Positions 10,717 to 22,449 of a stretch of 64,000 nucleotides of DNA are shown piece by piece. The translations under genes were made by a program, and so were the position numbers. Each line of letters starts with the position of its first letter. The stretch's first letter is position 1. The stretch covers positions 124,001 through 188,000 of the forward strand of contig NZ_JACA01000012.1 in assembly GCF_000520995.1 (NCBI RefSeq), written 5' to 3'. Under the pieces are notes generated by a model. That model saw only the letters and a program-made list of their open reading frames with translations. It was not told the origin of the DNA and made no database searches. This DNA is from Aquimarina macrocephali JAMB N27 (GTDB taxonomy: Bacteria > Bacteroidota > Bacteroidia > Flavobacteriales > Flavobacteriaceae).

Positions 10717-10802
10717 AAATTTATAGTAAAAATTACTACCCAAGGGTAACAAAAATTTAAAGTTATTGATCTAAGGTTGTAAATGATAAAAAATCACATA
10801 TC

Positions 10803-10922
10803 ATGAAAACAACGATAAAATTTTTAGCATACTTACTAATAGCTTTTTCTTTAATTTTTATAATTATAAAGGAAAAGATCAATCTAATAGAAAAATCAAT
10901 CCTCAAAGCAGAACCTAGCTAG
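10803..10922 (+). CDS. Possible 39-residue single-membrane-span peptide
   Basis: ATG at 10803 opens 40 codons ending in TAG. Residues 5-22 (IKFLAYLLIAFSLIFIII) form one hydrophobic helix, flanked by a short basic N-terminus and an amphipathic KEKINLIEKSILKAE tail. It stands alone in the gap between the phosphoesterase and the collagen-like lipoprotein. Such small membrane peptides are common in flavobacteria, but no family is recognised and it could be a chance frame; the coherent start, helix and charged tail argue mildly for a gene. Confidence 0.4.
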   Translation: MKTTIKFLAYLLIAFSLIFIIIKEKINLIEKSILKAEPS

Positions 10923-11091
10923 ATAGATATTAGATTCAATTACAACTCATTTTTTTGTTCTATTCTTCAAAATGAAATAGACTACAGAATTGATAGTGTT
11001 TTTTAAACATGAGTTTAAAACAATACAAATTCGGGAAATAACCCCTTATAGACATATGGTTTTACCCTATATAAATTAAGGTTTTAGCCTC

Positions 11092-11122
11092 TTGATAACT
11101 TTTTAAGCTCGTTGCATCTTTG
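11092..11122 (+). promoter_or_regulatory. Candidate Bacteroidetes promoter for the collagen-like lipoprotein gene
   Basis: TTG at 11092-11094 and CATCTTTG at 11115-11122 are 20 bases apart, close to the Bacteroidetes sigma pattern TTTG-N17-23-TAnnTTTG (one mismatch in the -7 box). Transcription would begin near 11129, leaving a leader of about 80 bases. The rest of 10923-11208 is AT-rich and shows no other feature to me. Confidence 0.35.
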
Positions 11123-11208
11123 TAGCATGTAGTTGTAATTGTGGGATCTATTATTAAAACACTTCGCAAATAAACAATTGAATATTCACACAATTAATAA
11201 TTAATAAC

Positions 11209-11703
11209 ATGAAAAGTATGGAAACAATAATGAAAAAATTTAAGTATGGTATTTTGGTACTAATCTTATTTTTAGGTTCTTGCTCTACAGAAGATGGGGT
11301 CGATGGTCAAATAGGACCACAGGGACCAGCAGGAGCTGATGGAACAAATGGACAAGATGGGAACGCTAATGTAGTCTCTGTTTTATTCGAAAACCAAACG
11401 ATATCTAACGGAGATAATGTTTTTGACATTCCCGAATTAACACAGGAAATATTTGACACCGGTATTGTTTATGCCTATGTTACGGTCACGGGTAATACCT
11501 ATTGGGAAACTTTACCACTTAGTCTAGGCCAGCAAATCATCCTAGAGATCGATAAGATTGAGGTTGGAAAAGCCACATTACGTGCTACTTTTACTCAATC
11601 TAATCTTAGACTTCGGTTTGTGTTGATAGAAGGCAATGATGCCAGCGGTATTAATTTTGAGAACTATCTAGAAGTACAGTCATTTTATAATCTAACAGAT
11701 TAA
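11209..11703 (+). CDS. Lipoprotein with short collagen-like Gly-X-Y repeat
   Basis: The 164-residue product has a lipoprotein signal with lipobox LGSC (Cys25 from the start at 11209; a second ATG at 11230 would also serve and gives a tidier signal peptide). Right after the lipid site come seven Gly-X-Y triplets (GQIGPQGPAGADGTNGQDGN), then a globular beta-rich domain of about 120 residues (VVSVLFENQTISNGDNVFDI onward). Gly-X-Y spacers after a lipobox are common in flavobacterial surface lipoproteins and likely act as a stalk. The globular domain is unidentified. It has its own hairpin terminator, so it is probably a single-gene transcript. Confidence 0.75.
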   Translation: MKSMETIMKKFKYGILVLILFLGSCSTEDGVDGQIGPQGPAGADGTNGQDGNANVVSVLFENQTISNGDNVFDIPELTQEIFDTGIVYAYVTVTGNTYWETLPLSLGQQIILEIDKIEVGKATLRATFTQSNLRLRFVLIEGNDASGINFENYLEVQSFYNLTD

Positions 11704-11768
11704 CTTCAACATGTAGTAGTCAAACATGAGTATTTAAAGAAAAAATTGACTATATAATAAATGATAAG

Positions 11769-11806
11769 CAACCCTTACCCAATTTCTTGATGAGTAGGGG
11801 TTGTTC
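11769..11806 (+). terminator. Hairpin after the collagen-like lipoprotein
   Basis: Arms CAACCCTTAC (11769-11778) and GTAGGGGTTG (11794-11803) pair with one G-T, followed by TTCTATT. The remaining 11704-12074 gap holds nothing else that I can support. Confidence 0.6.
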
Positions 11807-12074
11807 TATTAGAGCATTTCAAAATCAATTGATTTATTTTTTAATTTCTTCTTTTCTTAAAAAATATATTCAATGATCAAAAAACAGATCAGCGCATGAC
11901 TTAAAGAATAACAAATCAACATAGGAGGTAACATTCTATTTTACCATTACAGAATAAGTACTAATCTAAAAACGGAAAATATTTCAGACAAGATCCATAT
12001 GAAGGACTGGGGTCTTGTCTTCTATAAACGTTATATTATAAACTCATTCTCAACGAAAAATAGCAAAAGGACGC

Positions 12075-13913
12075 ATGTCAAAAAATTTACTATATGTAAT
12101 TTCTGTTCTTATTTTATCAAGTGTATATTATTGTAGTCTTAATGCTCAAAACAACCAAGATAGAAATACAACTCAAATTCCTTTTGAAGTATATAAAACT
12201 ACCAATGGTACCATATCGATACATGATATTATAAAATCTGACACTCTTTTTCGATCGTCTAAATATTTTACCAAAAAAACCAGGCCTAAAGATATTTACT
12301 GGATAAAAATCGACCTCAATAAAGAATTAAAAACTGATAGTCTTTGGTTTCTAAAATCCAGTAATTATGCACACGCATCTATGTTTTGTCTTGAGAACAA
12401 TACACTGGTAGAAAAGAAATTTGGTTTATTTGATGGTTCAGAAAAAATGAATTCTATATCCAATATTAATAGAATACCTCTTAAATACAGCTCACTTATC
12501 AAAAATCAATTTATATATTTAAAAATAAGACGTTTAAGATTTTCGGATCGCGTTACTAATTGGAAATTTCATTATGCTTCACAAACCATAAACCATTCAT
12601 CACAAAATTATTACCTCCAAAAAAATATTAAAACTCCAGTACGCAAATACATTTTTACAGGAGTCTGTCTGGTTATGTTTATTCTTACTCTTGCGTTCTT
12701 TATTACTTCAAGAAATTTTGAATTCTTATTTTACTCTTTATATATTTTATCGTTATCTATTTATCTAAGTGGTCCTTTACTTATAGCAAACAACATCATT
12801 TTTGATAACTATAACATCATCATTTACTGGTTTTTTCAGATCATACAAGTATTAATTAATTTATGTTATGTTTATTTTGTTTCGCTTTATTTAGTCACAA
12901 AAAAGGACTATCCTGCACTTAATCGTACCATAAAATACATCATCTACACACTTGGTATTATCATAATTGCAGACAGTTTCTTTTTGTATTTTAACTATTT
13001 TGAAGGAGCTATTTATACTATGAATATTCAACGTTTAATAATGACTTTTTTTGGTATTGGCGGGATGATTTATTTACTTCTAACTGCCAAAAACCGTTTA
13101 GCTTATTTTATAGTTGCTGGATCATTCTTATTCATGATAGGCACCCTGGGTTTCTTTTTTACCAAGGCATGCGATTATATGATGGTTGGAGCAACTCTCG
13201 AAATCATAATTTTTGCATTAGGCTTAGCCTATAAAATACATCAGGAGCATAAAGAAAAACTCCTCTTCGAAAAAGAATCATTTATTAACAATTGTAAAGC
13301 GCTAAGAGCTCAGATAAACCCTCATTTTATTTTTAATTCTTTAGGGTCAATTCAACATTTAATTGTACTCGAAAAAAAAGAAGCTGCTTTAAAATATCTG
13401 GTTAAGTTTAGTCATTTAACACGAACCCTTCTTGAAAACTCTATAGAAACAAATATCGTATTATCTGATGAAATCAACTTACTACGGCAATATCTAGAAT
13501 TAGAAGCTTTACGTTTTGACACCTCTTTTGAGTACACTATTCATGTAGATGATACTCTAGATGCAGATGCCGAAGAAGTACCTATGTTGATCATTCAACC
13601 ATTTGTCGAAAATGCAATCCTGTACGGTTTATTGAATAAAAAAGGAGATAGCAAAAAGTTGAATATTAGTTTCAGAAAAGAAAAAAATCAAATTATCTGT
13701 AAAATAGATGATAATGGTATAGGAAGAAATGCAGCTAAAAACATAAATTCGTCTCTTAAAAAAACCACAAAATCCAGAGGTTTAGAATTAACTGAAAAAA
13801 GATTACAAAGATTTCATAAATCTGAAGAAAAAAATATAGAAATTATAGACAAAATAGATAACCATGGTATGTCTATAGGAACAAGGGTGATTATCAAAAT
13901 TCAAACAGAATAA
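12075..13913 (+). CDS. LytS-type sensor histidine kinase with 7TMR-DISM-like sensor
   Basis: This 612-residue kinase has a signal peptide (to about residue 24), an extracytoplasmic beta-sandwich of the 7TMR-DISM extracellular type (about 30-185), and a run of about seven hydrophobic helices (about 193-392). A LytS/YehU His_kinase domain follows: the phosphoacceptor His is in INPHFIFNSL near residue 416. The ATPase N-box is QPFVENAILYGL and the G-box is DDNGIGRN. This class pairs with LytTR regulators, and one follows after 12 bases. The ligand is unknown; 7TMR-DISM ectodomains commonly sense carbohydrates or small molecules. Confidence 0.93.
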   Translation: MSKNLLYVISVLILSSVYYCSLNAQNNQDRNTTQIPFEVYKTTNGTISIHDIIKSDTLFRSSKYFTKKTRPKDIYWIKIDLNKELKTDSLWFLKSSNYAHASMFCLENNTLVEKKFGLFDGSEKMNSISNINRIPLKYSSLIKNQFIYLKIRRLRFSDRVTNWKFHYASQTINHSSQNYYLQKNIKTPVRKYIFTGVCLVMFILTLAFFITSRNFEFLFYSLYILSLSIYLSGPLLIANNIIFDNYNIIIYWFFQIIQVLINLCYVYFVSLYLVTKKDYPALNRTIKYIIYTLGIIIIADSFFLYFNYFEGAIYTMNIQRLIMTFFGIGGMIYLLLTAKNRLAYFIVAGSFLFMIGTLGFFFTKACDYMMVGATLEIIIFALGLAYKIHQEHKEKLLFEKESFINNCKALRAQINPHFIFNSLGSIQHLIVLEKKEAALKYLVKFSHLTRTLLENSIETNIVLSDEINLLRQYLELEALRFDTSFEYTIHVDDTLDADAEEVPMLIIQPFVENAILYGLLNKKGDSKKLNISFRKEKNQIICKIDDNGIGRNAAKNINSSLKKTTKSRGLELTEKRLQRFHKSEEKNIEIIDKIDNHGMSIGTRVIIKIQTE

Positions 13914-13925
13914 AATTTTCTAATT

Positions 13926-14675
13926 ATGAGCTTAACAGCAATAATTGTAGATGATGAAAAACACAGTAGAGAAACCTTAACAAAATTGATAGAAGAGTTT
14001 TGCCTGGAAACAACTGTTTTGACCACTGCAAATTCTGTAACAGAAGCTGTCGATAAAATTAAAAACTATAACCCTGATGTTGTCTTTTTGGATATCGAAC
14101 TACAATCAGGAATAGGTTTTGATATACTAACCCAAATCGACACCATAAATTTTGAAGTGATTTTTACCACTGCTTACGAGCAATATGCTATACAAGCCAT
14201 AAAATTTTCATCTTTAGATTATTTACTTAAACCTTTAAGTATCGAAGAACTCAAAAATGCCATAGAAAAAGCAAAGAAAAAGAAAGATCAAGAGATTTAT
14301 AAAAAACAATTAGAAACCTTAATAGATAATCTACAACAGCCAAAGTTTAATAAAATATGTCTCTCTACAGCAGATAGTGTAGAGTTTATTAATGTAGAGG
14401 ATATTATATACTGCAAGGCTAATGGTGCCTATACTTCATTTATTCTTAAAGATAATATATCTCTATTAGTAAGCAAACATCTTAAAGAATATGAAAACTT
14501 ATTGATCGAACAACAATTTATGAGAATACATAATAGTTTTTTGATCAATTTAAAAGAAGTGAAAAAATTTGTGAAGTCAGATGGAGGTTATATTATAATG
14601 AACAATAACGACAGTATAAATATCTCAAAAAACAAAAAAGAGAAGTTTCTTGTTTCTATGAGTCATCTGCAATAA
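13926..14675 (+). CDS. LytTR family response regulator
   Basis: The 249-residue protein has a receiver domain (1-120) with acidic pocket DDEK near residue 10, phosphoacceptor Asp56 in VFLDIEL, threonine in FTTAYEQ and lysine in YLLKPL. A LytTR DNA-binding domain follows (about 145-249: EDIIYCKANGAYTSF, then FMRIHNSFLINLKEV). LytTR regulators bind pairs of about 9-bp direct repeats with centres 21-22 bp apart. It is co-transcribed with the kinase. The next two transcription units downstream carry 21-bp-phased motifs, making them natural target candidates. Confidence 0.95.
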   Translation: MSLTAIIVDDEKHSRETLTKLIEEFCLETTVLTTANSVTEAVDKIKNYNPDVVFLDIELQSGIGFDILTQIDTINFEVIFTTAYEQYAIQAIKFSSLDYLLKPLSIEELKNAIEKAKKKKDQEIYKKQLETLIDNLQQPKFNKICLSTADSVEFINVEDIIYCKANGAYTSFILKDNISLLVSKHLKEYENLLIEQQFMRIHNSFLINLKEVKKFVKSDGGYIIMNNNDSINISKNKKEKFLVSMSHLQ

Positions 14676-14748
14676 TAATACAACAAACCGTATTCTTGTC
14701 ATTTACATATCCAAAATGAATCCATATCTCGATTAATGTGTTGTCTTA

Positions 14749-14832
14749 TCAATTGATAAGCTATATCTATCAATTGAAACCATATGGTTATTAATTTCTA
14801 CCCATCATTGTTTTCAGGTGTATTTAAGTTTG
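14749..14832 (+). promoter_or_regulatory. 21-bp-phased motif array and -7 box upstream of paralogous lipoprotein 1
   Basis: TCAATTGATA begins at 14749, TCAATTGAAA at 14770 and a weaker TTAATTTCTA at 14791, exactly 21 bp apart. A -7-like TAAGTTTG begins at 14825, 34 bases after the last copy. The same geometry occurs before the cysteine-rich peptide gene at 15862-15966. The spacing suits LytTR proteins; assignment to the adjacent regulator is inference. Confidence 0.55.
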
Positions 14833-14856
14833 AACTTAATTTTAAAACTTAAAACC

Positions 14857-15693
14857 ATGAAAAACAAAATCAAATTTAATTTAGTGAGGATCATTGTAAT
14901 TTTCACTCTTTTCTTATGCTATTCTTGTAGTTCTGAAGAAGATACTATCCATAAAAATGAAGAATCGATAGAAATACCCGTTCTAACACCTAAAACTTTG
15001 GTAACTATAGAATTGCCTAGTAACACTACGATTACTTTTAAAACAGAAACCGACGGTATTGTCTTTGAAGCTTCTGGAGACTCTGATAACTTTGGCGAAT
15101 TAGATGGGTTAGATGATTTAAGTCTGTTAGATCGTTTTTTAACCTTAACCGACGAAAGTATTGCCGTACCTACAGATCTTATCAAATTAGAAGAAGATCA
15201 AAAAATCAAAGAAAAAGCATTGCAAAGAGCTACAATAGAAAAACACAGTGTAAATCTATCTGTTGCCAAATCTTTTTTAAATAATGCCAGAAAAGATTGG
15301 TTAGACCATTGTGGTGATCCAAAAGTAAATAATAATTTTACAGGAAATGATCATTATAAACAAACGTACATAAATTACAATACCATAGTTACTACCAGCA
15401 GTTTAGGCAAATCGGGTTATAATGGCAAATGCAGAAAAGTTCAATATTCTGTAAGTAATTGCTCGTATACTAATTCCTTATACGTCTCTTATTATAATTA
15501 TCCCAAAACAGGCCCAAAAAAACTTTATTCATTGGTTAATATTCCAAAACGAAAACATAAATACTATTCTAAAACATATTTTACAAGTTCAAAAAAGGAG
15601 GTACAAATTGCTGGTGCGCAAAATAAACGATTTGTTGGATATGTAATTTTCTCTAAATACAAAAATAGTTCAGTAGGAGGGCTAGGACTTTAA
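14857..15693 (+). CDS. Paralogous secreted lipoprotein 1 of three (unknown family)
   Basis: The frame is open from 14818, but the ATG at 14857 starts a proper lipoprotein signal with lipobox LCYSC and an acidic SSEED spacer; it also lies downstream of the candidate promoter. The 278-residue product shares two regions with the genes at 20591 and 21447. The first is residues 45-130 (LTPKTLVTIEL, then TDGIVFEASG, VPTDLIKLEEDQ); the second is a C-terminal half with conserved cysteines (DHCGD, GKCRKVQY, SNCSY) and a closing R-x-GY beta strand. This copy is the most divergent and lacks the RRYRKTS block of the other two. I recognise no family. Confidence 0.8.
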   Translation: MKNKIKFNLVRIIVIFTLFLCYSCSSEEDTIHKNEESIEIPVLTPKTLVTIELPSNTTITFKTETDGIVFEASGDSDNFGELDGLDDLSLLDRFLTLTDESIAVPTDLIKLEEDQKIKEKALQRATIEKHSVNLSVAKSFLNNARKDWLDHCGDPKVNNNFTGNDHYKQTYINYNTIVTTSSLGKSGYNGKCRKVQYSVSNCSYTNSLYVSYYNYPKTGPKKLYSLVNIPKRKHKYYSKTYFTSSKKEVQIAGAQNKRFVGYVIFSKYKNSSVGGLGL

Positions 15694-15757
15694 TAAAATA
15701 TCAAAACCTGTCTTTTATAAAAATTCACCCCAACAAAACCCCTTAGCATCTATAATG

Positions 15758-15832
15758 TTTGTTAGTAAATGTTGAATTAAGTAAGGAGAGAGTTCTCCCT
15801 AATCACGAATTCGTGATTAGGGAGTTCTTCAT
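15758..15832 (+). repeat. Copy 1 of a 75-bp hairpin repeat
   Basis: The sequence TTTGTTA to TTAAGTAAGG leads into a perfect 30-bp palindrome at 15795-15824 (arms CTCCCTAATCACGAA and its complement) followed by TTCTTC. A diverged second copy lies at 18114-18187. It follows the lipoprotein gene and probably ends its transcript. The two copies bracket the peptide and hydrolase genes. Confidence 0.75.
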
Positions 15833-15861
15833 GTTTTAACAACAACCAATTTGTTCGATGA

Positions 15862-15966
15862 TCAATTAAAAAGCTATGCTCATCTATTGAAAACATACAT
15901 CTATCAATTGAAACACACCTCTTGTCAATTGCTTCTTACCACTCTTAATTAACTACTCTAAATTTA
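15862..15966 (+). promoter_or_regulatory. Four-copy 21-bp-phased motif array and -7 box upstream of the Cys-rich peptide
   Basis: Motif copies begin at 15862 (TCAATTAAAA), 15883 (TCTATTGAAA), 15904 (TCAATTGAAA) and 15925 (TCAATTGCTT), each exactly 21 bp from the last. A -7-like TAAATTTA begins at 15959, 34 bases after the last copy, the same distance as at the 14749 array. Direct repeats two helical turns apart are the hallmark of LytTR-family binding; the regulator gene is 1.2 kb upstream. The -7 box lacks the final G of the consensus. The leader to the ATG at 16058 would be about 85 bases. Confidence 0.6.
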
Positions 15967-16057
15967 CCAAAATGGTGATATACAGAATTAAAGCATAACG
16001 CTTAAATCTCTGATATAAATCAGTATAGTTATTTAAAAAATCTTAATATTTCACATC

Positions 16058-16240
16058 ATGTTAAACAACATTTTAAACTTAGAAAACGTCAAAAAAATTG
16101 AGAAAAAACAGCAAAAAGGAATTGCAGGAGGAGTCTTTTCTAACTATTGCGGATCGTGTTGCCAGTACTGTAGAAGTAATGGACATGACACAGGAGCTCT
16201 TCATAATGGAGATTGCTATTGCTCTAATTATAGACACTAA
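16058..16240 (+). CDS. Small cysteine-rich peptide with double-glycine-type leader
   Basis: This 60-residue product begins with a leader (LNLENVKKIEKKQQKGIAGG, ending at residue 25) in the style of bacteriocin-type or ComC-like leaders that are cut after GG by C39-peptidase ABC exporters. The remaining 35 residues hold six cysteines arranged C-x2-CC-x2-C, then C-x-C near the end, plus Gly, Asn, His and Tyr. Three disulfides or a thioether/metal-binding product are possible. It sits directly under the four-copy 21-bp motif array and ahead of the secreted hydrolase gene. A bacteriocin or signalling role is inferred; no exporter is in the window. Confidence 0.75.
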   Translation: MLNNILNLENVKKIEKKQQKGIAGGVFSNYCGSCCQYCRSNGHDTGALHNGDCYCSNYRH

Positions 16241-16269
16241 AAAATAAGTTTTTTATGCCCCATAAGCAA

Positions 16270-16303
16270 TTAACTCCTAGTCATAAACTCATGGTTAGGG
16301 GTT
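16270..16303 (+). terminator. Weak hairpin after the Cys-rich peptide gene
   Basis: AACTCCTAGTCA and TGGTTAGGGGTT pair with G-T wobbles around an ATAAACTCA-type loop. No U tract follows on either strand, so it may stabilise or attenuate rather than end transcription, leaving the hydrolase gene 92 bases after the peptide partly co-transcribed. Confidence 0.4.
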
Positions 16304-16331
16304 AAAAAAACTAATCAATCTTAAAATCAAC

Positions 16332-17924
16332 ATGAAACACCTAATCAAATCAAGTTTAGCAAAAGCTATAGTAGTATTCGCTATTTTCTTATTCTATTCG
16401 TGTAGCTACGAAGAGGATATGGTATTAGAAAATGAAACCTTAGTCGAAAATAAAGAGTTAGTTTTTGAAGCTCCACTTCCTCCGATTATATCTGATGGCC
16501 CTTACAACTATAAAGCTAAAAATTATTCTTTTTTTACACAAAACCAAGAAGAGCATAAAGGTAAATATTACATGCCTGTCGGTGGCTTTTCTAATTACCC
16601 TTTAGCATTAATCATGCACGGAAATGGATTTGCATACAACGAATATGATATTTTACAAAAACATCTTGCCAAACACGGTATTGCCAGTGCTAGTATACAA
16701 TGGGATTCTGGCAAACATGATCTGAGTGTAAATACAGAAATGACAAAGCATATTAACTGGTTATTTAATCAATATCCACAATTAATTAATTCGATAGCAC
16801 TTATAGGCCATAGTATGGGAGGCGGAGCAGTAGTAAGATTTGCCGATGATCTGGAAACCACAACAGGTAAAAATGTAAAATCTGTAGTATCGCTTGCTCC
16901 CGCACTTCAACATGATATGAATGTTAAACATAACCTTATTAGTACCATAAAAGGGCTACTGATCATATACTCTGGAAACGATGAGGATAGATATGGGGCA
17001 AAAAGTTTTGACGGAAGAGAGCAAAGCGGTTTTAAATTTTATGATGAGTGCTCTGCTGAAGGATCAACTTTTAGCAACCTATTTCCTGCAAAAGATATGA
17101 TCTTTTTTAAAGATGGACGTCATACTATGTATACCGATAGGGCTCAGCAACCTCTTAATTATCAATACAGTGGTGTTAATCAAAATAAAGTAATCAATGC
17201 CTACATATTGGCACATCTGAAATTATATCTTCAAAATCACCCAGAATACAACCAATTTTTTAAATACCAGAGAAGGCCTTCTAATATGCCCCAAAATGAT
17301 GTATCTGAGTTTTATCAACAACATACAGATGCCAAAAAAAGTGTACTTGCCAACTTCGAAAACAATTCGTCTACCCAAAATTATGCTGGAGGAGATATCG
17401 TTAAATCTTCTAGTGGGATTATTACAATGAAGGTAGGAAACAGTTGGAAACTTCATTCTTACTCACCTCATCATACTAAGGCAATGAGGATAACGTGGAC
17501 CAAAAGAAATGTAGGAAGTTCGTTTGTGAAATTTAAATACCCGTCATCTCGTAATTTGTCGTCATATTCATTTCTAAGTATTAGAGCATCCCAAATTTAT
17601 AAGAACATTTATAACACCACAGATAAAGAGCAGGATTTCTACATTAGACTCAAGGATAAACAAGGCATATACTCAAAAAAAGTGAAGATCAGTGATTTTG
17701 GTATAATACCCTATCCAATAAAACACAGCGGTAGTACCATACTCCCCTTACAAACACCCATTTCTAAACTTACAAAAAGTGCCATGACCAGTACACTAAT
17801 CCCATTAAGTGCATTTGGTAACAATATTAACCTTTCAAATATAAAAGAAGTATTTCTGGTATTTGATGTTCCAGGTCATGAAACTGGTGCGATTATGATT
17901 GATAATTTAGAGTTTTATAAGTAA
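16332..17924 (+). CDS. Secreted alpha/beta hydrolase lipoprotein with C-terminal beta domain
   Basis: The 530-residue product has a lipoprotein signal (lipobox FYSC, Cys24) very like that of the paralogous lipoproteins in this locus, including a YEED spacer. Residues 60-315 form an alpha/beta hydrolase: oxyanion strand LALIMHGNGF (about 91-100), nucleophile elbow GHSMGGG (Ser about 161), Asp in YSGNDEDRYG (about 217) and His in KDGRHTMYTD (about 258). This resembles dienelactone/PET-hydrolase or chlorophyllase-type folds. Residues 340-530 look like a jelly-roll module ending IMIDNLEFYK, typical of CIA30/carbohydrate-binding-like domains. The substrate is unknown. Two hairpins follow it. Confidence 0.8.
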   Translation: MKHLIKSSLAKAIVVFAIFLFYSCSYEEDMVLENETLVENKELVFEAPLPPIISDGPYNYKAKNYSFFTQNQEEHKGKYYMPVGGFSNYPLALIMHGNGFAYNEYDILQKHLAKHGIASASIQWDSGKHDLSVNTEMTKHINWLFNQYPQLINSIALIGHSMGGGAVVRFADDLETTTGKNVKSVVSLAPALQHDMNVKHNLISTIKGLLIIYSGNDEDRYGAKSFDGREQSGFKFYDECSAEGSTFSNLFPAKDMIFFKDGRHTMYTDRAQQPLNYQYSGVNQNKVINAYILAHLKLYLQNHPEYNQFFKYQRRPSNMPQNDVSEFYQQHTDAKKSVLANFENNSSTQNYAGGDIVKSSSGIITMKVGNSWKLHSYSPHHTKAMRITWTKRNVGSSFVKFKYPSSRNLSSYSFLSIRASQIYKNIYNTTDKEQDFYIRLKDKQGIYSKKVKISDFGIIPYPIKHSGSTILPLQTPISKLTKSAMTSTLIPLSAFGNNINLSNIKEVFLVFDVPGHETGAIMIDNLEFYK

Positions 17925-18029
17925 CCCAGAAGTAGTTTGTATAGTATATTTTTTGAATTCAATATCACTATGCCGTTTTAAATGTTTTCCAATCTTCTAA
18001 TTCCCTGCCTGGGTTACTGAATACCCCCT

Positions 18030-18061
18030 CACTCTCTAATTCGATCAAGAGTTAGAGAGTG
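18030..18061 (+). terminator. Hairpin terminator after the hydrolase
   Basis: Arms CACTCTCTAATTC (18030-18042) and GAGTTAGAGAGTG (18049-18061) with loop GATCAA, followed by TTATTTATAGTATTTT. It ends the plus-strand hydrolase transcript. The gap 17925-18254 otherwise holds the second hairpin repeat and a minus-strand terminator. Confidence 0.75.
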
Positions 18062-18113
18062 TTATTTATAGTATTTTCATACAATTCTGCAGTGCAGATT
18101 TACATTTACAACT

Positions 18114-18187
18114 TTTGTTATTTAAGTTGAGTTAAGTAAGGGTTGGAGTTCTCCTTAATCACGAATTCGTGGTTAAGGGCTCTCTTA
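18114..18187 (+). repeat. Copy 2 of the 75-bp hairpin repeat
   Basis: Matches copy 1 at 15758-15832 from TTTGTTA through TTAAGTAAGG into the hairpin at 18153-18178 (CCTTAATCACGAA / TTCGTGGTTAAGG), with scattered substitutions and one single-base gap. It is followed by a T-rich tail. Copies 1 and 2 flank the peptide-hydrolase cassette. Confidence 0.7.
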
Positions 18188-18199
18188 TTTCATAAACAT

Positions 18200-18235
18200 A
18201 AAAAAAACCGCCCAGAATACTTTCTAGACGGTCTC
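18200..18235 (-). terminator. Terminator of the second leader-peptide gene
   Basis: On the minus strand ACCGTCTAGAA pairs with TTCTGGGCGGT around AAGTA and is followed by eight T residues. It lies 20 bases after the stop of the peptide gene at 18255. Confidence 0.75.
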
Positions 18236-18254
18236 TTTTCATTTTGATATTCTG

Positions 18255-18446
18255 CTAATTTCGAATAACAGTTGGTCCAATACAACCATAAGAAGGACAC
18301 CCCGTTGTGTTTGCGCAATCATCGGGATCATAACTTTTTATAAATGAGATAGAGATAATACCTCCTCCTCTCACGGTTTCCAAACGATCAAATTTTGCAA
18401 TTTCAAATTTTTTAAGCTCCAATTTTTTTGTTTTCTGTTTTTTCAT
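18255..18446 (-). CDS. Small GG-leader peptide, natural-product-precursor-like
   Basis: This 63-residue product has a basic leader (KKLELKKFEIAKFDRLETVR then GGG, residues 7-29). LKKFxIAKxxxLxxxxGG-type leaders are typical of Bacteroidetes ribosomal natural product precursors. The core (about 34 residues) holds three cysteines spaced C-x5-C-x3-C with adjacent Thr/Ser (ANTTGCPSYGC). It has its own promoter candidate and terminator, so it is a single-gene unit convergent with the hydrolase. No lanthipeptide dehydratase, cyclase or exporter lies nearby, so any modification or export would rely on enzymes encoded elsewhere. Confidence 0.75.
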   Translation of the reverse strand: MKKQKTKKLELKKFEIAKFDRLETVRGGGIISISFIKSYDPDDCANTTGCPSYGCIGPTVIRN

Positions 18447-18481
18447 GTTCCTTACTTTATAAATGTTTGTGTAATTTTCTT

Positions 18482-18551
18482 CAAATCTAGAATAAGCATT
18501 TTAAAATAAATCCTATAGTGCAGCCTCATTTCAAGGATTTCATGAATTTCG
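18482..18551 (-). promoter_or_regulatory. Candidate promoter and upstream motif of the GG-leader peptide
   Basis: On the minus strand TAGATTTG (complement of 18482-18489) fits the -7 consensus, with TTTA 17 bases upstream. About 48 bases before the -7 box lies CGAAATTCATG (complement within 18537-18551), which overlaps the end of the regulator gene region. It resembles the CGAAATTCGTG arm at 20453-20465. Confidence 0.4.
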
Positions 18552-18556
18552 AGAAA

Positions 18557-20293
18557 TTATTCTATACTTAAAGCAGTTAGTTTTCTCATAAAATATGAAG
18601 GTTTCATCCCTGTATTTCTTTTAAAGGCTGATGAAAAAGATTCAGCACTATTAAAACCCATTTCCTCTGCTATACCCTGAATCGTATAATTTTTAAGAGA
18701 ACTGTTTTCTTTTAATTGATCAACACTATATTGTACTCTTAACTCATTTACATAATTTGTAAAACTCTTATGTTTATGGTGATTAATTATCTTCGATAAA
18801 TACTTGGTATTTGTATTAATTTCTTTAGCCAAAGAAGAAATACTTATATTTTTTTTCAAGAATTCATGCCTCTCCTCAAAAAGAGTTAGTTTTTCAAGAA
18901 TATCACTAACTATATCGTCAGCAATACCGATATCCCCTAATGACTTTTTAGGTAATTCTTTAGTCCTCTTACCTTTATCAAGTAATTCTTTGAATTTGCG
19001 CTCATACTTCTTTCTTTTTATATATTGATAATACATAAAAGTAATAGCCATTAAAAACAATACAATCAGAAATCCTACCCAAAAACTTAGTGTGTTGGTA
19101 TTTTTTTCTAATTTCTCGATTAATACTTTCTTTTCTTTAAGGAGTAGTGGAGTGTCGAATTCTTTAAACAATTTTGTAGAGACAGATGTTCTCTGACTAT
19201 TTACAATACTATCAAACTGAAGTAACTTATTAATGTACACCAATTGTTTCTCTTTTTCTGCTCTGGATTTGTATAAGCCGATTAAAAACTCATATCCTTT
19301 TCTCGTTTCAGAAAGGGTAATTCTTTCTTTTTGAACAATAGAATCCATACTTAAAAACTCTTTTTCAGTTTTTACGGTATCTTTTCTTTTGAGATGAAGT
19401 TGGCCTAAATAGAAAGATCCCAGCACATAACTTTCCTTATCTTTTGAATTATACTTGTTTAGCAAAGCAATCCCTTTAACAATACTATCATATGCTTGAT
19501 TATATTGTTTTTCAAAAAACAGATTGACCCCTTCATTCAAAACCAATTTACCATAAAACTTACGCTTTAGTTTTTCTGTTTTCAGAGATCTCGATATCCC
19601 TATATCATTATAAAAAGATGCCGAATCGATTTGTCTATTATAGCGAAAAGATTCTGCCATGGGAATTAACGACTGTAAATAAGAAACCATATTTAACTCA
19701 TCCCTGTTCCTTTCATAAATAAAATTTTCTTTAAAAAGCAACAAAGCTTCCTGATGCTTATCAATCTTTGTTTTAATGCATGCAATATTATGATTTGTAT
19801 ATTGCATATATTCTTTGTTATTAACCTTTTCTGCGAGTGATAGTGCTTGTATATAATTATCTAGAGCAAGTTGATAATCACCTTTCATAAAGTAATACCC
19901 TCCCTTAAAAGAGTACGCTTTAACGGGATATTTATCATGATTCTGTTTCTTACTTATATTTATAGCCAGGTCTAATAATGCAATTTTTTTAGATTCCATT
20001 ACCTCATAATATGATAAATGACTGTAAGCTTTAGCCATTTTTATAGTATCCTTTTCTGCAATTGCTTTATCCAAATATGCCAATAGATATAATTTGGATT
20101 TTATAGTATCACGACTAACATTTCGATAGGAAGCATATAAACGATTATAACTAAGTTTTCGTAACGAATCTGAAGAAGCATCTGTTTGTTCTTGTCCTAA
20201 TGCCATCTGCACGCCAAGAATTATCCAAATTAAAAGCCTTATTAGACTACATGAGTCAAAAACGTAGTTTATTTTTTTTGGTATCAAGAGCAC
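18557..20293 (-). CDS. AraC-type regulator with TPR repeats and a membrane helix
   Basis: The 578-residue product starts with a signal-anchor (to about residue 34), followed by TPR-like helices over about 60-370 (for example YPVKAYSFKGGYYFMKGDYQ). A membrane helix at about 401-422 (FWVGFLIVLFLMAITFMYY) precedes a basic coiled linker. Two AraC-type helix-turn-helix motifs form residues 470-575 (ISSLAKEINTNTKYLSKII, and TIQGIAEEMGFNSAESFSSA then FKRNTGMKPSYF). This architecture is common in Bacteroidetes one-component regulators that sense outside and bind DNA inside. It is divergent from the lipoprotein pair at 20591. A perfect inverted repeat in the shared 297-base gap is a good operator candidate. 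Confidence 0.88.
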   Translation of the reverse strand: MLLIPKKINYVFDSCSLIRLLIWIILGVQMALGQEQTDASSDSLRKLSYNRLYASYRNVSRDTIKSKLYLLAYLDKAIAEKDTIKMAKAYSHLSYYEVMESKKIALLDLAINISKKQNHDKYPVKAYSFKGGYYFMKGDYQLALDNYIQALSLAEKVNNKEYMQYTNHNIACIKTKIDKHQEALLLFKENFIYERNRDELNMVSYLQSLIPMAESFRYNRQIDSASFYNDIGISRSLKTEKLKRKFYGKLVLNEGVNLFFEKQYNQAYDSIVKGIALLNKYNSKDKESYVLGSFYLGQLHLKRKDTVKTEKEFLSMDSIVQKERITLSETRKGYEFLIGLYKSRAEKEKQLVYINKLLQFDSIVNSQRTSVSTKLFKEFDTPLLLKEKKVLIEKLEKNTNTLSFWVGFLIVLFLMAITFMYYQYIKRKKYERKFKELLDKGKRTKELPKKSLGDIGIADDIVSDILEKLTLFEERHEFLKKNISISSLAKEINTNTKYLSKIINHHKHKSFTNYVNELRVQYSVDQLKENSSLKNYTIQGIAEEMGFNSAESFSSAFKRNTGMKPSYFMRKLTALSIE

Positions 20294-20445
20294 TTATTTA
20301 CTTTATAAAATCTTATAGTAAATATAATCTTTTGATCAAAACATTTACTTCTTAAAAACCCCTAATCAGCGTCAGAAAAAACTTACATTTTGCCATTTAT
20401 TAATTGAAGATATATCTGTGAAACTCTGAAAAAAATATCTAAAAA

Positions 20446-20537
20446 AATCAATATCGAAATTCGTGGAATTTCGATATTGATTTCAGGAATTTCGATATAA
20501 TCAATTTGTTTTCAAATAGATACCCAGTCTATATTTG
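20446..20537 (+). promoter_or_regulatory. Perfect inverted repeat plus promoter for the lipoprotein pair
   Basis: AATCAATATCGAAATTC (20446-20462) and its exact complement (20466-20482) flank GTG. A third half-site GAATTTCGATAT lies at 20487-20498. Directly after come TTTG (20505-20508) and TATATTTG (20530-20537) with a 21-base spacer, a full match to the Bacteroidetes promoter. The position upstream of -33 fits an activator site, most simply for the divergent AraC-type regulator; that link is inference. Start would be near 20544. Confidence 0.7.
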
Positions 20538-20590
20538 TCCCAATCACAAATTAAAACAATAGACTAATTAACATTAAAAAACTAAAACAA

Positions 20591-21418
20591 ATGAAAAATT
20601 TATTGAAATTAAAAGTCAACATAAAAGCAGTTATGTTATTTACATTTATCACATTCTTTTCATGTAATGTAGAAGAAGAAATCGAACCAGAAAATGAAGT
20701 TGGATTAGATACAGAAGAAATCGCATTAACACCCAAAACTTTAGCAACAATACAGCTCACCAATAATGTAGAAGTAATTTTTAAAACTGAAGAGGATGGA
20801 GTTGTATTTGAAGCCACAGGAAATGTTAGCAATTTTGACGGATTAGGAGCATTAGAGAATAAAAGTATATTGAATCGCTTTTTGGTATTAACCAAAGAAA
20901 ACGTTCCTGTTCCTGAAGATTTGATAGAAACAGAAGAAAATCAAGAATTAAAAAACGAAGCTTTAAAGAGAGGTACCATTAAACAACATGCAGCCAAATT
21001 AGATTCTCAACTTACATTGTTGTATACCAAGGGTCCTGCAAATTCTAATCATTGTTCTGGAACACCAGGATATTACGACACCGATGCTTTTGGTAAGTTT
21101 TCCCGTTCTTATAAAAATTATCTGGCCGGAGGTGCTGGAACAATAATTTATAGCTCTTGGAAAAATAATGGTAATAAGTGTAAAGATGTAAAATTATGGC
21201 TTTCAAATTGTAGTACAAGTAAAACTTTAAAGGCTCGAACATATTACAAAAATATATTTGGAAATTATAAGCTTCGTAATACAGTTAATATTTCTCCAAA
21301 CACTGCCAAGTTTTGGTCTAAAACCTATTTGTCTCGTAGATATAGAAAAACGTCTGTAGCGGCAACTGGTCAAGCGGGACATCGATTTGGAGGATATTTA
21401 CTATTTACAGATTATTAA
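20591..21418 (+). CDS. Paralogous secreted lipoprotein 2 of three (unknown family)
   Basis: This 275-residue lipoprotein has lipobox FFSC and an acidic spacer (NVEEEIEPENE). The N-terminal domain (about 45-135) carries LTPKTLATIQL, then NNVEVIFKTEEDGVVFEATG, VPEDLIETEENQ and LKRGTIKQHA. The C-terminal domain (about 150-275) has three conserved cysteines (NHCSG, NKCKDVKL, SNCST), a YYKNIFGNYKL hairpin and the block YLSRRYRKTS then HRFGGYLLF. It looks like an all-beta secreted domain. It is first in a two-gene unit with its paralogue 28 bases downstream, behind the strong promoter at 20505-20537. Confidence 0.82.
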   Translation: MKNLLKLKVNIKAVMLFTFITFFSCNVEEEIEPENEVGLDTEEIALTPKTLATIQLTNNVEVIFKTEEDGVVFEATGNVSNFDGLGALENKSILNRFLVLTKENVPVPEDLIETEENQELKNEALKRGTIKQHAAKLDSQLTLLYTKGPANSNHCSGTPGYYDTDAFGKFSRSYKNYLAGGAGTIIYSSWKNNGNKCKDVKLWLSNCSTSKTLKARTYYKNIFGNYKLRNTVNISPNTAKFWSKTYLSRRYRKTSVAATGQAGHRFGGYLLFTDY

Positions 21419-21446
21419 TCTATAAAAAACATAATAAAACAGAATC

Positions 21447-22280
21447 ATGAAAAATAAAATCATATCAACGCACAGGATAACAGACACTTCTATATTCATG
21501 TTAGTCATTGCCTTGTTTTTCCTTTATTCCTGTAATAAAGAAGAAGAATCTATATCAGCACCTGAATTAGAGAATACAAATGAAGAAATAATTCTAGTAC
21601 CAAAAACACTAGCCACTATTAAATTATCCAACAATGTGGATTTAGTATTTAGAAGTGAATCTGATGGTGTAGTTCTGGAAGCTAAAGGAAGCACAGATAA
21701 TTATAATGGTTTGGGAGATCTAAAAACATTAAGCTCATTAGAAATCTTTCTTGCATTAACCGATAATGATGTAGAAGTACCAAGTGATCTTCTGCTTATC
21801 GAAGAAAATCAAAAAGTTAAAACCAAGGCTCAAAAAAGAAGTATCACTGAAAAACATAATAAAATACTTGTCGCAAAAGATTCTCAAATACTCCAAAAAT
21901 TTGAAGGGAGTTATTGTGTTGGATCTTCCAACTATAACACATACGATCAATCTGGAAAATATTATCGTATATATAATAACTATAATGCCGGTGCAGCAGG
22001 AACCACTTTTTATAGTTCAGGAAAACAAGGGGCAAGTAAATGCAAAAGATTAGAATTGGAAATAACGAATTGTAATGCCAACAATTCTCTAAAGGTGAGA
22101 ACTTACTATAAAATATTTGGAAATTATAAAATAAAGAAAACTATTAATGTCGCTCCACATACATCTTCGACGTATAGAAAAACGTTTCTATCAAAAAGAT
22201 ATCGACGTACTTCAATTTCTTCATCAGGAAATTTAAACAATCATCGATTTGGCGGATACTTGTTATATACCAGATACTAG
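21447..22280 (+). CDS. Paralogous secreted lipoprotein 3 of three (unknown family)
   Basis: The 277-residue product is closest to the gene just upstream: lipobox LYSC, acidic NKEEES spacer, LVPKTLATIKL, then SESDGVVLEAKG, VPSDLLLIEENQ and a C-terminal domain with SYCVG, SKCKRLELEI, TNCNA, YYKIFGNYKI and RRTS then HRFGGYLLY. The pair is probably a tandem duplication that has diverged strongly. The N-terminal domain is rich in regularly spaced hydrophobics, and the C-terminal domain ends in a conserved strand as in many secreted beta domains. A perfect-stem terminator follows. Confidence 0.82.
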   Translation: MKNKIISTHRITDTSIFMLVIALFFLYSCNKEEESISAPELENTNEEIILVPKTLATIKLSNNVDLVFRSESDGVVLEAKGSTDNYNGLGDLKTLSSLEIFLALTDNDVEVPSDLLLIEENQKVKTKAQKRSITEKHNKILVAKDSQILQKFEGSYCVGSSNYNTYDQSGKYYRIYNNYNAGAAGTTFYSSGKQGASKCKRLELEITNCNANNSLKVRTYYKIFGNYKIKKTINVAPHTSSTYRKTFLSKRYRRTSISSSGNLNNHRFGGYLLYTRY

Positions 22281-22312
22281 CATACATAAATTATGTTAAA
22301 ATTTGTGAAGTC

Positions 22313-22356
22313 AATAAGCTTCAAAAGGATGTATTTTCTTTGAAGCTTATTTTTTC
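22313..22356 (+). terminator. Terminator of the lipoprotein pair
   Basis: AATAAGCTTCAAA (22313-22325) and TTTGAAGCTTATT (22339-22351) pair perfectly and are followed by TTTT. Confidence 0.85.
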
Positions 22357-22449
22357 ATCCTTTACTTTCTCTTCATTTATCCAAAATTAATTTTTCATCA
22401 ACCGTTCAATTTTGTAGCTTTAGAACACAAATTTAAAATCAACTCATCA

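What the first reader, a model, noticed from the sequence alone, without database searches (positions are those of the whole stretch)
10717..22360. Candidate undescribed secreted-peptide / surface-lipoprotein system under two regulators
In under 12 kb there are two leader-bearing cysteine peptides, three paralogous lipoproteins of unrecognised family, a secreted hydrolase with a near-identical lipoprotein signal, a collagen-like lipoprotein, a LytS/LytTR pair and a TPR-AraC regulator. Most units have their own promoter or terminator. The combination, and the lack of any local exporter or modifying enzyme, does not match a system I can name.
Basis: partly seen in the sequence, partly recalled or inferred. 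Interest (0 to 1): 0.78.

Follow-up and report, generated by a model that had tools for sequence, protein, structure and literature searches.

The report
Peptide–regulator cassettes with surface lipoproteins
The region holds two separate secreted-peptide modules, and one of them belongs to a large, apparently undescribed set in which a membrane-bound regulator with a peptide-binding-type domain sits next to, and appears to switch on, the gene for a small exported peptide, as a bacterial peptide-signalling system would.

Summary
The genes are real, but they form two separable modules of an Aquimarina genome, not one system.

Module A: a 7TMR-DISM/LytTR pair with PEP1, LP1 and the hydrolase. TATCAATTGAAA boxes in 21-bp phase precede LP1 and PEP1. 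All 9 exact genus-wide matches to the array pattern lie beside this regulator; in one relative seven arrays each precede a target gene.

Module B: a TPR-AraC protein with PEP2, LP2 and LP3. Its operator TCGAAATTCMTGAAAT is exact 12 times in 66 genomes; 11 are at this locus.

Following PEP2 led outside the window. Peptides with its leader type (LxLxKx5L…GG) lie downstream of a TPR-AraC gene in 55 of 60 sampled loci, against 2 of 30 for PEP1-type peptides. A palindrome TTCN2-3GAA precedes 35 of 37 such peptides (47 of 354 control promoters); where a TAnnTTTG element is found it mostly lies 56–58 bp further on. Peptide core similarity follows the sensor more than the DNA-binding domain. Exporters exist elsewhere: three C39 transporters.

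I infer self-inducing peptide-signalling cassettes. Regulator control of the peptide gene is strongly supported by sequence; peptide as ligand is inferred. Ten literature searches found no description. The lipoproteins appear genus-restricted.

The parts
12075..13913 (+). Module A: 7TMR-DISM sensor histidine kinase (LytS-like His_kinase domain)
   Evidence: Pfam PF06580 E 7.5e-21, PF07695 E 1.3e-10, weak PF07696 below its cut-off
13926..14675 (+). Module A: LytTR response regulator
   Evidence: PF00072 and PF04397; relatives at E<=1e-60 in 14 of 66 genus genomes
14747..14779 (+). LytTR operator array of LP1: TATCAATTGATA / TATCAATTGAAA boxes 21 bp apart
14857..15693 (+). Module A: lipoprotein LP1 (family seen only in the genus)
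15860..15934 (+). LytTR operator array of PEP1: boxes at 15860, 15881, 15902 and a degenerate fourth at 15923, all at 21-bp phase
   Evidence: fourth box read by eye
16058..16240 (+). PEP1: 60-aa precursor, GG leader MLNNILNLENVKKIEKKQQKGIAGG, six-Cys core
16332..17924 (+). HYD: secreted lipoprotein alpha/beta hydrolase
   Evidence: PF12146 7e-6 (just under its cut-off), PF07819 3e-5 (at its cut-off); an orthologue directly follows a LytTR array in G020 and in G285; in the window it has no array of its own
18255..18446 (-). PEP2: 63-aa precursor, class-I-lanthipeptide-type leader ending RGG, three-Cys core
18482..18489 (-). TAGATTTG, Bacteroidota-type promoter element of PEP2, 57 bp after the operator core
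18537..18552 (-). TPR-AraC operator of PEP2, TCGAAATTCATGAAAT (core TTCATGAA 18539-18546)
18557..20293 (-). Module B: TPR-AraC regulator: N-terminal signal/TM helix, TPR superhelix, long helix through the membrane, AraC HTH
   Evidence: PF13424, PF12833; AlphaFold model pLDDT 87; Foldseek TPR matches include Rap and NprR; membrane topology inferred
20452..20476 (.). Palindrome TATCGAAATTC-GTG-GAATTTCGATA between the regulator gene and LP2
20480..20495 (-). Second operator TCGAAATTCCTGAAAT (core 20482-20489)
20530..20537 (+). TATATTTG promoter element of LP2
20591..21418 (+). Module B: lipoprotein LP2
   Evidence: AlphaFold pLDDT 81; weak jelly-roll match to CBM22/CBM6
21447..22280 (+). Module B: lipoprotein LP3

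Best explanation
Two independent secreted-peptide modules sit in a variable site between a metallophosphatase and an SPFH gene. Module B is one copy of a widespread cassette. A one-component regulator holds a TPR domain in the periplasm and an AraC DNA-binding domain in the cytoplasm. It binds a palindrome about 57 bp upstream of a Bacteroidota-type promoter element and turns on the adjacent gene for a double-glycine-leader peptide (PEP2) and, here, LP2-LP3. The peptide is cleaved and exported by one of three C39 (PCAT) transporters encoded elsewhere, is in some cassettes trimmed by a secreted S8 or S9 protease, and most likely binds the periplasmic TPR groove as the activating signal, which makes a self-inducing loop. 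Module A is a LytTR regulon: a 7TMR-DISM kinase and its regulator, through 21-bp-phased box arrays, drive PEP1, LP1 and the hydrolase; PEP1 is an exported effector-type peptide. Shown at sequence level: the genes, pairing, operators, promoter spacing, separability and exporters. Inferred: topology, activation, which exporter and which protease act, and above all that the peptide is the ligand.
For: Pairing: 55 of 60 PEP2-type peptides follow a TPR-AraC gene (same strand, within 900 bp), against 2 of 30 PEP1-type. Reverse test: 65 of 78 named TPR-AraC loci have a leader-HMM peptide downstream, against 10 of 347 other genes there (by regex 50 of 78 and 11 of 340). Operator: TTCN2-3GAA before 35 of 37 representative peptides, against 47 of 354 control promoters (Fisher 8e-25); four control patterns not enriched. 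Of 39 operator-to-TAnnTTTG distances, 31 are 56-58 bp (65 promoters, orthologues included); PEP2's is 57. The window's operator is exact 12 times in 66 genomes, 11 at this locus in six genomes. The three C39 transporters of the genome lie 2.1, 5.0 and 6.5 kb from a TPR-AraC gene. Two cassettes in other genera (L191, L192) have regulator, peptide, S9 protease, ABC exporter and HlyD with no LanB seen in the 14-15 kb fetched. Core similarity follows TPR given HTH (partial rho 0.17, Mantel p 0.002 with 500 permutations), not HTH given TPR (0.05, p 0.14), also with TPR cut to 113 columns. Module A: 9 of 9 exact arrays beside the regulator; seven arrays precede seven targets in G285.
Against: No binding or expression data. 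The LxLxKx5L leader is that of class I lanthipeptide precursors, and several cassettes contain LanB enzymes, so the peptide could be an effector made under the regulator and not its ligand. With only the most conserved TPR columns the sensor-specific signal vanishes (0.09 against 0.11). Best-per-genome TPR-AraC loci of other genera have the peptide in only 5 of 29 (7 of 29 by eye). In the window's own genome 10 of 17 are paired, and only 5 of those 10 have the palindrome in the first 150 bp after the regulator's stop. The palindrome also follows 16 of 26 TPR-AraC genes counted as unpaired by regex (some of these do have a peptide by the HMM). At up to one mismatch the AraC-box pattern is barely commoner than its backward control (about 104 against 85). 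A shared-16-mer test of autoregulation was weak (7 of 37).
Confidence: 0.55

Rival explanations
1. Regulator-target only: the TPR-AraC protein senses something else in the periplasm (envelope stress, a glycan, a host compound) and PEP2 is one of its outputs, an exported effector, with LP2/LP3 as further outputs.
For: Pairing and operators fit equally well. Some TPR-AraC genes have no peptide, above all in other genera. LP2's C-terminal domain weakly resembles carbohydrate-binding jelly rolls.
Against: Core similarity tracks the sensor and not the DNA-binding domain (not with the most conserved columns). L191 and L192 hold regulator, peptide, protease and exporter without a LanB in the stretch fetched.
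Confidence: 0.33
2. PEP2-type peptides are orphan class I lanthipeptide precursors, modified in trans by the genome's LanB/LanC and acting as antimicrobials, with LP2/LP3 as immunity lipoproteins; the regulator is a cluster regulator, possibly autoinducing as nisin is (recalled).
For: 59 of 60 PEP2-type leaders have the relaxed and 45 of 60 the strict LxLxKx5L motif, 0 of 30 PEP1-type, the motif reported for Bacteroidetes class I precursors (PMC7268733, passages seen). LanB lies in the cassette in L185, L186, L187, L188 and L190, LanC in L181. A weak NCBIfam match of LP3 to an immunity family (E 0.019, far under its cut-off).
Against: 10 of 60 cores have no Cys and 7 only one, so not all can be lanthipeptides. 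The LP family was found only in the genus while the pairs reach other genera, so it is no general immunity partner.
Confidence: 0.25
3. Module A is itself a ComCDE-like loop in which PEP1 is the signal for the 7TMR-DISM kinase.
For: GG-leader peptide, kinase and LytTR regulator with phased direct repeats in front of the peptide gene, an arrangement recalled from streptococcal competence and bacteriocin systems. The 8 genomes with a PEP1 core all have the regulator within about 11 kb.
Against: G020 and G017 have kinase and regulator but no PEP1 core. PEP1-type peptides are not generally next to LytTR genes: one (L069) of the 22 loci without a PEP1 core, with 1.5-kb flanks. PEP1 has six Cys and looks like an effector.
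Confidence: 0.15
4. One reading: one undescribed joint system of both peptides, all lipoproteins and both regulators.
For: In three genomes (G000, G002, G004) both modules lie side by side.
Against: At this site the modules occur apart in G016, G001, G027, G020 and G285 and have different operators.
Confidence: 0.04

Closest known systems
RRNPP peptide-receptor pairs of Firmicutes (Rap, NprR, PlcR, PrgX, Rgg)
   Same: Receptor gene with a TPR domain next to the gene of a small exported peptide; the AlphaFold TPR domain matches Rap-pheromone and NprR structures among many other TPR proteins.
   Different: Here the receptor is an AraC-type regulator with C-terminal HTH and predicted membrane anchoring with the TPR outside, so no peptide re-import; peptides have double-glycine leaders; hosts are Gram-negative. 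RRNPP_detector was run on Firmicutes genomes (PMC10075063, passages seen).
Class I lanthipeptide clusters of Bacteroidetes (LxLxKx5L...GG precursors, C39 export, split LanB)
   Same: Same leader motif; LanB N and C parts, S8 protease, HlyD and C39 transporter in several cassettes (PMC7268733, passages seen).
   Different: The window, L191 and L192 have no LanB in the stretch read; some cores lack Cys; a TPR-AraC gene is the near-constant partner. The terms AraC, TPR and tetratricopeptide do not occur in the main text of PMC7268733.
ComCDE / class II bacteriocin regulons (GG peptide, HPK10 kinase, LytTR regulator, phased direct repeats; recalled)
   Same: Module A has kinase, LytTR regulator, a GG peptide and 21-bp-phased repeats before targets.
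   Different: The kinase is 7TMR-DISM type; PEP1 is absent from some relatives that keep kinase and regulator; targets are surface lipoproteins.
Bacteroidales RiPP clusters BGC2/BGC9 with TPR genes (PMC10352776)
   Same: The authors saw TPR-domain genes in clusters with GG peptides and raised pheromone binding by analogy with Rgg (passages seen).
   Different: TPR-AraC pairing, operator, promoter geometry and genome-wide repetition are not in the passages I read.

Membership tests
RRNPP | TPR-type peptide-binding domain | tested here: met
   PF13424; model and Foldseek matches to Rap/NprR, generic TPR similarity; peptide binding itself not tested
RRNPP | Cytoplasmic receptor that binds re-imported peptide; N-terminal XRE-type HTH or phosphatase output (recalled) | tested here: not met
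   AraC HTH at the C-terminus, helices that read as TM segments on both sides of the TPR domain. It is therefore not filed as RRNPP
RRNPP | Adjacent small exported propeptide gene | tested here: met
   55 of 60, 65 of 78; 5 of 29 in the best loci of other genera
Class I lanthipeptide precursor (Bacteroidetes type) | LxLxKx5L leader ending in GG | tested here: met
   PEP2 itself fits the relaxed form (F for the last L)
Class I lanthipeptide precursor (Bacteroidetes type) | LanB and LanC in the cluster | tested here: not met
   none recognised among the window's ORFs by reading; LanB and LanC on other contigs
Class I lanthipeptide precursor (Bacteroidetes type) | Lanthionine rings in the product | not testable with these tools
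   needs mass spectrometry
PCAT-exported GG peptides | C39-peptidase ABC exporter in the genome | tested here: met
   three, E 1.1e-39 to 1.2e-32; two of them read as full exporters
LytTR regulon | Phased direct repeats (two helical turns) before target genes | tested here: met
   21-bp phase; 9 of 9 exact arrays beside the regulator
ComCDE-type pheromone system | Peptide is the ligand of the kinase | not testable with these tools
   kinase and regulator occur without PEP1 in G020 and G017

The most novel reading that the evidence does not exclude
Flavobacteriaceae carry a large, undescribed class of peptide-pheromone systems, ten in the window's own genome: a transmembrane one-component receptor (periplasmic TPR, cytoplasmic AraC) paired with its own double-glycine peptide, with a conserved palindromic operator at a fixed distance from a Bacteroidota promoter, C39 export and, in some, a secreted maturation protease. 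Sensing takes place in the periplasm, with no peptide re-import and no phosphorelay.
Probability: 0.42. Interest if true: 0.9.

Novelty: new variant of a known kind. Interest (0 to 1): 0.7.

Why it matters
I recall no established peptide quorum sensing in Bacteroidota, a phylum that dominates marine particles and animal guts (recalled). A repeated receptor-peptide pair with a recognisable operator, promoter spacing and exporter makes the question directly testable with a reporter and a synthetic peptide. It also gives a simple rule (TPR-AraC gene, palindrome, small downstream ORF) to find short peptides: the PEP2-type profile alone had about 400 matches in 66 Aquimarina genomes. And it links orphan lanthipeptide-type precursors to their regulators.

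Tried and rejected
One joint system: rejected because the modules occur apart. Collagen-like lipoprotein as a part: rejected for the window, since it stays where the modules are lost. Sigma-70 promoter scan: no excess. Rfam: no match. tRNA-linked island: no tRNA in the window. Fold of LP2: good model, but only weak jelly-roll matches (E 1.6e-4, TM 0.27 by query length), so no function is claimed. Shared-16-mer autoregulation test: weak, 7 of 37, in part because different cassettes share the same palindrome; replaced by the palindrome test. AraC-box search with up to one mismatch: too close to its control; only exact matches are used. Sensor-core covariation: positive, but absent when only the most conserved TPR columns are used, so it is given limited weight. 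Compensatory change in the LP2 palindrome: mixed. In G016 two arm changes are paired and one is not; in G002 and G004 the right arm alone has changed (by eye), so I do not use it as support. A CS-alpha-beta defensin-like fold for PEP1 was considered from its Cys spacing (recalled) and not tested. Rows dropped: L371 (no complete regulator ORF); from 52 pairs to 37 by removing similar peptides; regulators under 480 aa or cores under 10 aa (62 pairs left of 65). The leader HMM was trained on the 60 peptides, some orthologous to tested loci. Motif choice followed inspection on the same loci, so its Fisher value is optimistic; the fixed spacing and the control patterns are the safer support. The control genes were not purged of neighbouring TPR-AraC genes, so the control rate is, if anything, high. 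Three PEP1-type loci (L061, L062, L083) have a TPR-AraC gene on the opposite strand and count as misses.


Full report
WHAT IS THERE. The two regulators are a 7TMR-DISM histidine kinase with a LytTR response regulator and a TPR-AraC protein. The three lipoproteins are paralogues (36% and 35% to LP1) without a Pfam or NCBIfam family. Both peptides have double-glycine leaders and are conserved between species. The window is G000:C12:124001-188000 of a 6.06-Mb genome; the closest named records at this locus are Aquimarina megaterium and A. atlantica, with TPR-AraC at 93% and 94%.

TWO MODULES. I fetched 20 stretches around homologues in the own genome and relatives and compared gene order. At this site G002 and G004 have both modules. 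G016 has only PEP2, TPR-AraC, LP2 and LP3. G001 has only kinase, regulator, LP1 and PEP1. G027 has kinase, regulator, PEP1 and hydrolase. G020 has kinase, regulator and hydrolase. G012 and G254 have PEP2-like, TPR-AraC and a 160-aa lipoprotein; G256 has PEP2-like, TPR-AraC and an LP2-like lipoprotein (66%). G285 has an enlarged module A with four LP1-like lipoproteins (57-61%) and two hydrolases (82-83%). The stretch between the metallophosphatase and SPFH genes is thus a variable site. The lipoprotein family was seen only in the genus: among 199 genomes drawn from the family only the own genome matched at E<=1e-5 (best candidates only scored), and 8 of 56 relatives matched at E<=0.001, all of the genus, own genome included, one of them (G020) only through the signal region of its hydrolase.

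MODULE A OPERATOR. Repeats before LP1 and PEP1 are TATCAATTGAAA boxes at 21-bp phase, conserved in relatives; in G020, which lacks LP1 and PEP1, the hydrolase carries the same promoter. A pattern for the array has 9 exact matches in 66 genus genomes, all beside this regulator (G000 2, G002 1, G020 1, G001 2, G285 3), and 55 matches at up to one mismatch, in 27 genomes, against 5 for the backward control; many of the 55 are scattered singletons. All 7 genomes with a regulator at 90% identity or more have arrays at the module, two of them (G027, G004) only with one mismatch. In G285 seven arrays each precede a target: PEP1, four lipoproteins, one hydrolase, one small lipoprotein; four of them stand 78 bp before the start codon (positions, arithmetic mine); the second hydrolase has none. 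A distal array in G000 lies at C1:598386 and recurs in relatives.

MODULE B OPERATOR. The sequence TCGAAATTCMTGAAAT lies before PEP2 and between the regulator gene and LP2 in G000, G002 and G004; in G016 the PEP2 copy is exact and the other has changed. It is exact 12 times in 66 genomes, 11 of them at this locus in the six genomes with a TPR-AraC of 69% identity or more; G256 (61%) has a one-mismatch copy there, and one exact copy lies elsewhere, in G232 (identities). At up to one mismatch the pattern is not clearly above its control (about 104 against 85).

THE CASSETTE OUTSIDE THE WINDOW. Searching 66 genus genomes with PEP1-like and PEP2-like profiles gave many hits per genome, mostly through the leader. 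I took the best hit of 30 genomes for each type and 30 further PEP2-type hits chosen down the list, skipping neighbours of hits already taken. A TPR-AraC gene lies upstream on the same strand within 900 bp in 27 of 30 and 28 of 30 PEP2-type loci and in 2 of 30 PEP1-type loci. Of the five misses two are cut by a contig end (L112, L304), one has it at 934 bp (L114) and two have none (L102, L308). Conversely, of 79 named TPR-AraC loci (the best 80 of 473; 78 usable) 65 have a peptide by the leader HMM, against 10 of 347 other genes. From the list of misses: Aquimarina 47 of 52, Dokdonia 5 of 5 usable, Flavobacterium 7 of 8, one of one each in Winogradskyella and Sinomicrobium, 0 of 3 in Tenacibaculum, 0 of 1 each in Polaribacter, Kordia and Leptobacterium (regex adds one Tenacibaculum and the Kordia). 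Best-per-genome loci of other genera are poorer, 5 of 29; the own genome has 10 of 17; 0 of 11 AraC genes without TPR have it.

PROMOTER. Before 35 of 37 non-redundant peptides there is a TTCN2-3GAA palindrome, often with longer symmetric arms such as GGTCTGGTTTCCGGAAACCAGACT; control promoters of the same loci have it in 47 of 354, and four control patterns are at background. It is also found within 350 bp upstream of 28 of 37 regulators and after 16 of 26 regulators counted as unpaired by regex. A TAnnTTTG element (recalled as the Bacteroidota -7 element) is present in 34 of 65 peptide promoters, and 31 of 39 operator-to-element distances are 56-58 bp; these 65 include orthologues. PEP2's distance is 57 bp; LP2's operator cores stand 48 and 70 bp before its element. 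Fixed spacing of this kind fits an activator.

EXPORT AND PROCESSING. The genome has three C39-peptidase ABC exporters, 2.1, 5.0 and 6.5 kb from a TPR-AraC gene. Genes in cassettes are LanB N part (L185, L186, L187, L188, L190), LanB C part (L185, L186), S8 subtilase (L188, L190), S9 prolyl oligopeptidase (L178, L191, L192), HlyD and LanC. L191 and L192 hold regulator, peptide, S9 protease, HlyD and an ABC exporter (with C39 domain in L192; in L191 the ORF as called lacks it) and no LanB in the 14-15 kb fetched. PEP2-type leaders carry LxLxKx5L (59 of 60 relaxed, 45 of 60 strict; PEP1-type 0 of 30), and 10 of 60 cores have no Cys.

LIGAND OR TARGET. The AlphaFold model of the regulator (pLDDT 87) has an N-terminal helix, TPR helices 49-343, a long helix 347-442 and an AraC HTH; Foldseek finds peptide-binding TPR proteins including Rap and NprR, behind LGN and others, which is generic for TPR. 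In 62 pairs, peptide core similarity follows TPR identity given HTH identity (0.17, p 0.002, 500 permutations) and not the reverse (0.05, p 0.14), also with TPR columns subsampled to the HTH length (0.16 against 0.06), but not with the most conserved TPR columns (0.09 against 0.11). Leader similarity follows both domains. This supports, and does not prove, peptide-sensor coevolution.

LITERATURE. Ten searches of the paper library listed no paper whose title or abstract describes this pairing; most subscription journals are not held. I read passages of three papers: PMC10352776 notes TPR genes in Bacteroidales clusters with GG peptides; PMC7268733 reports the leader motif; PMC10075063 defines RRNPP pairs and covers Firmicutes. 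The others were seen as listings only.

VERDICT. The novel part is the TPR-AraC/GG-peptide cassette. Its regulatory logic is well supported at sequence level; the signalling role of the peptide is inferred.

Noticed in passing
L193 (G132:C1:1050001-1070000) and L194 (G157:C1:1585001-1605000): Arrays of seven and six TPR-AraC genes on one strand; L193 is head to tail, L194 is interrupted by other genes, one with a C39-like N-terminus (not tested).
   Followed up: no
L108, L118, L302, L312, L313: Some TPR-AraC-linked peptides share a core motif like STKTLPVGSG / LTKTFPIGTG, suggesting a common modification or recognition element.
   Followed up: no
L277 (G285:C2:2826001-2846000): Enlarged LytTR regulon with four LP1-like lipoproteins and two hydrolases, five of the six with their own phased array.
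   Followed up: partly
L133/L136 (G000:C20, about 59.0-60.5 kb): A TPR-AraC gene split into two ORFs directly downstream of an intact one, near a C39 exporter.
   Followed up: no
G000:C1:598386-598417 (L282): Distal LytTR-type array between a 245-aa lipoprotein-like gene and a 1536-aa gene, with matching arrays in several genomes that also have the regulator.
   Followed up: partly
window 10717-22449: The stretch between the metallophosphatase and SPFH genes holds different cassettes in different Aquimarina species: a local hotspot of gene exchange.
   Followed up: partly
L037, L043, L047, L050, L054: A second conserved TPR-AraC locus with a GG peptide in its own genome and relatives, lipoproteins sharing mainly the N-terminal part with LP1-LP3, and in most of these loci a 1056/456-aa gene pair (SusC/SusD-like by size, not tested).
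   Followed up: partly
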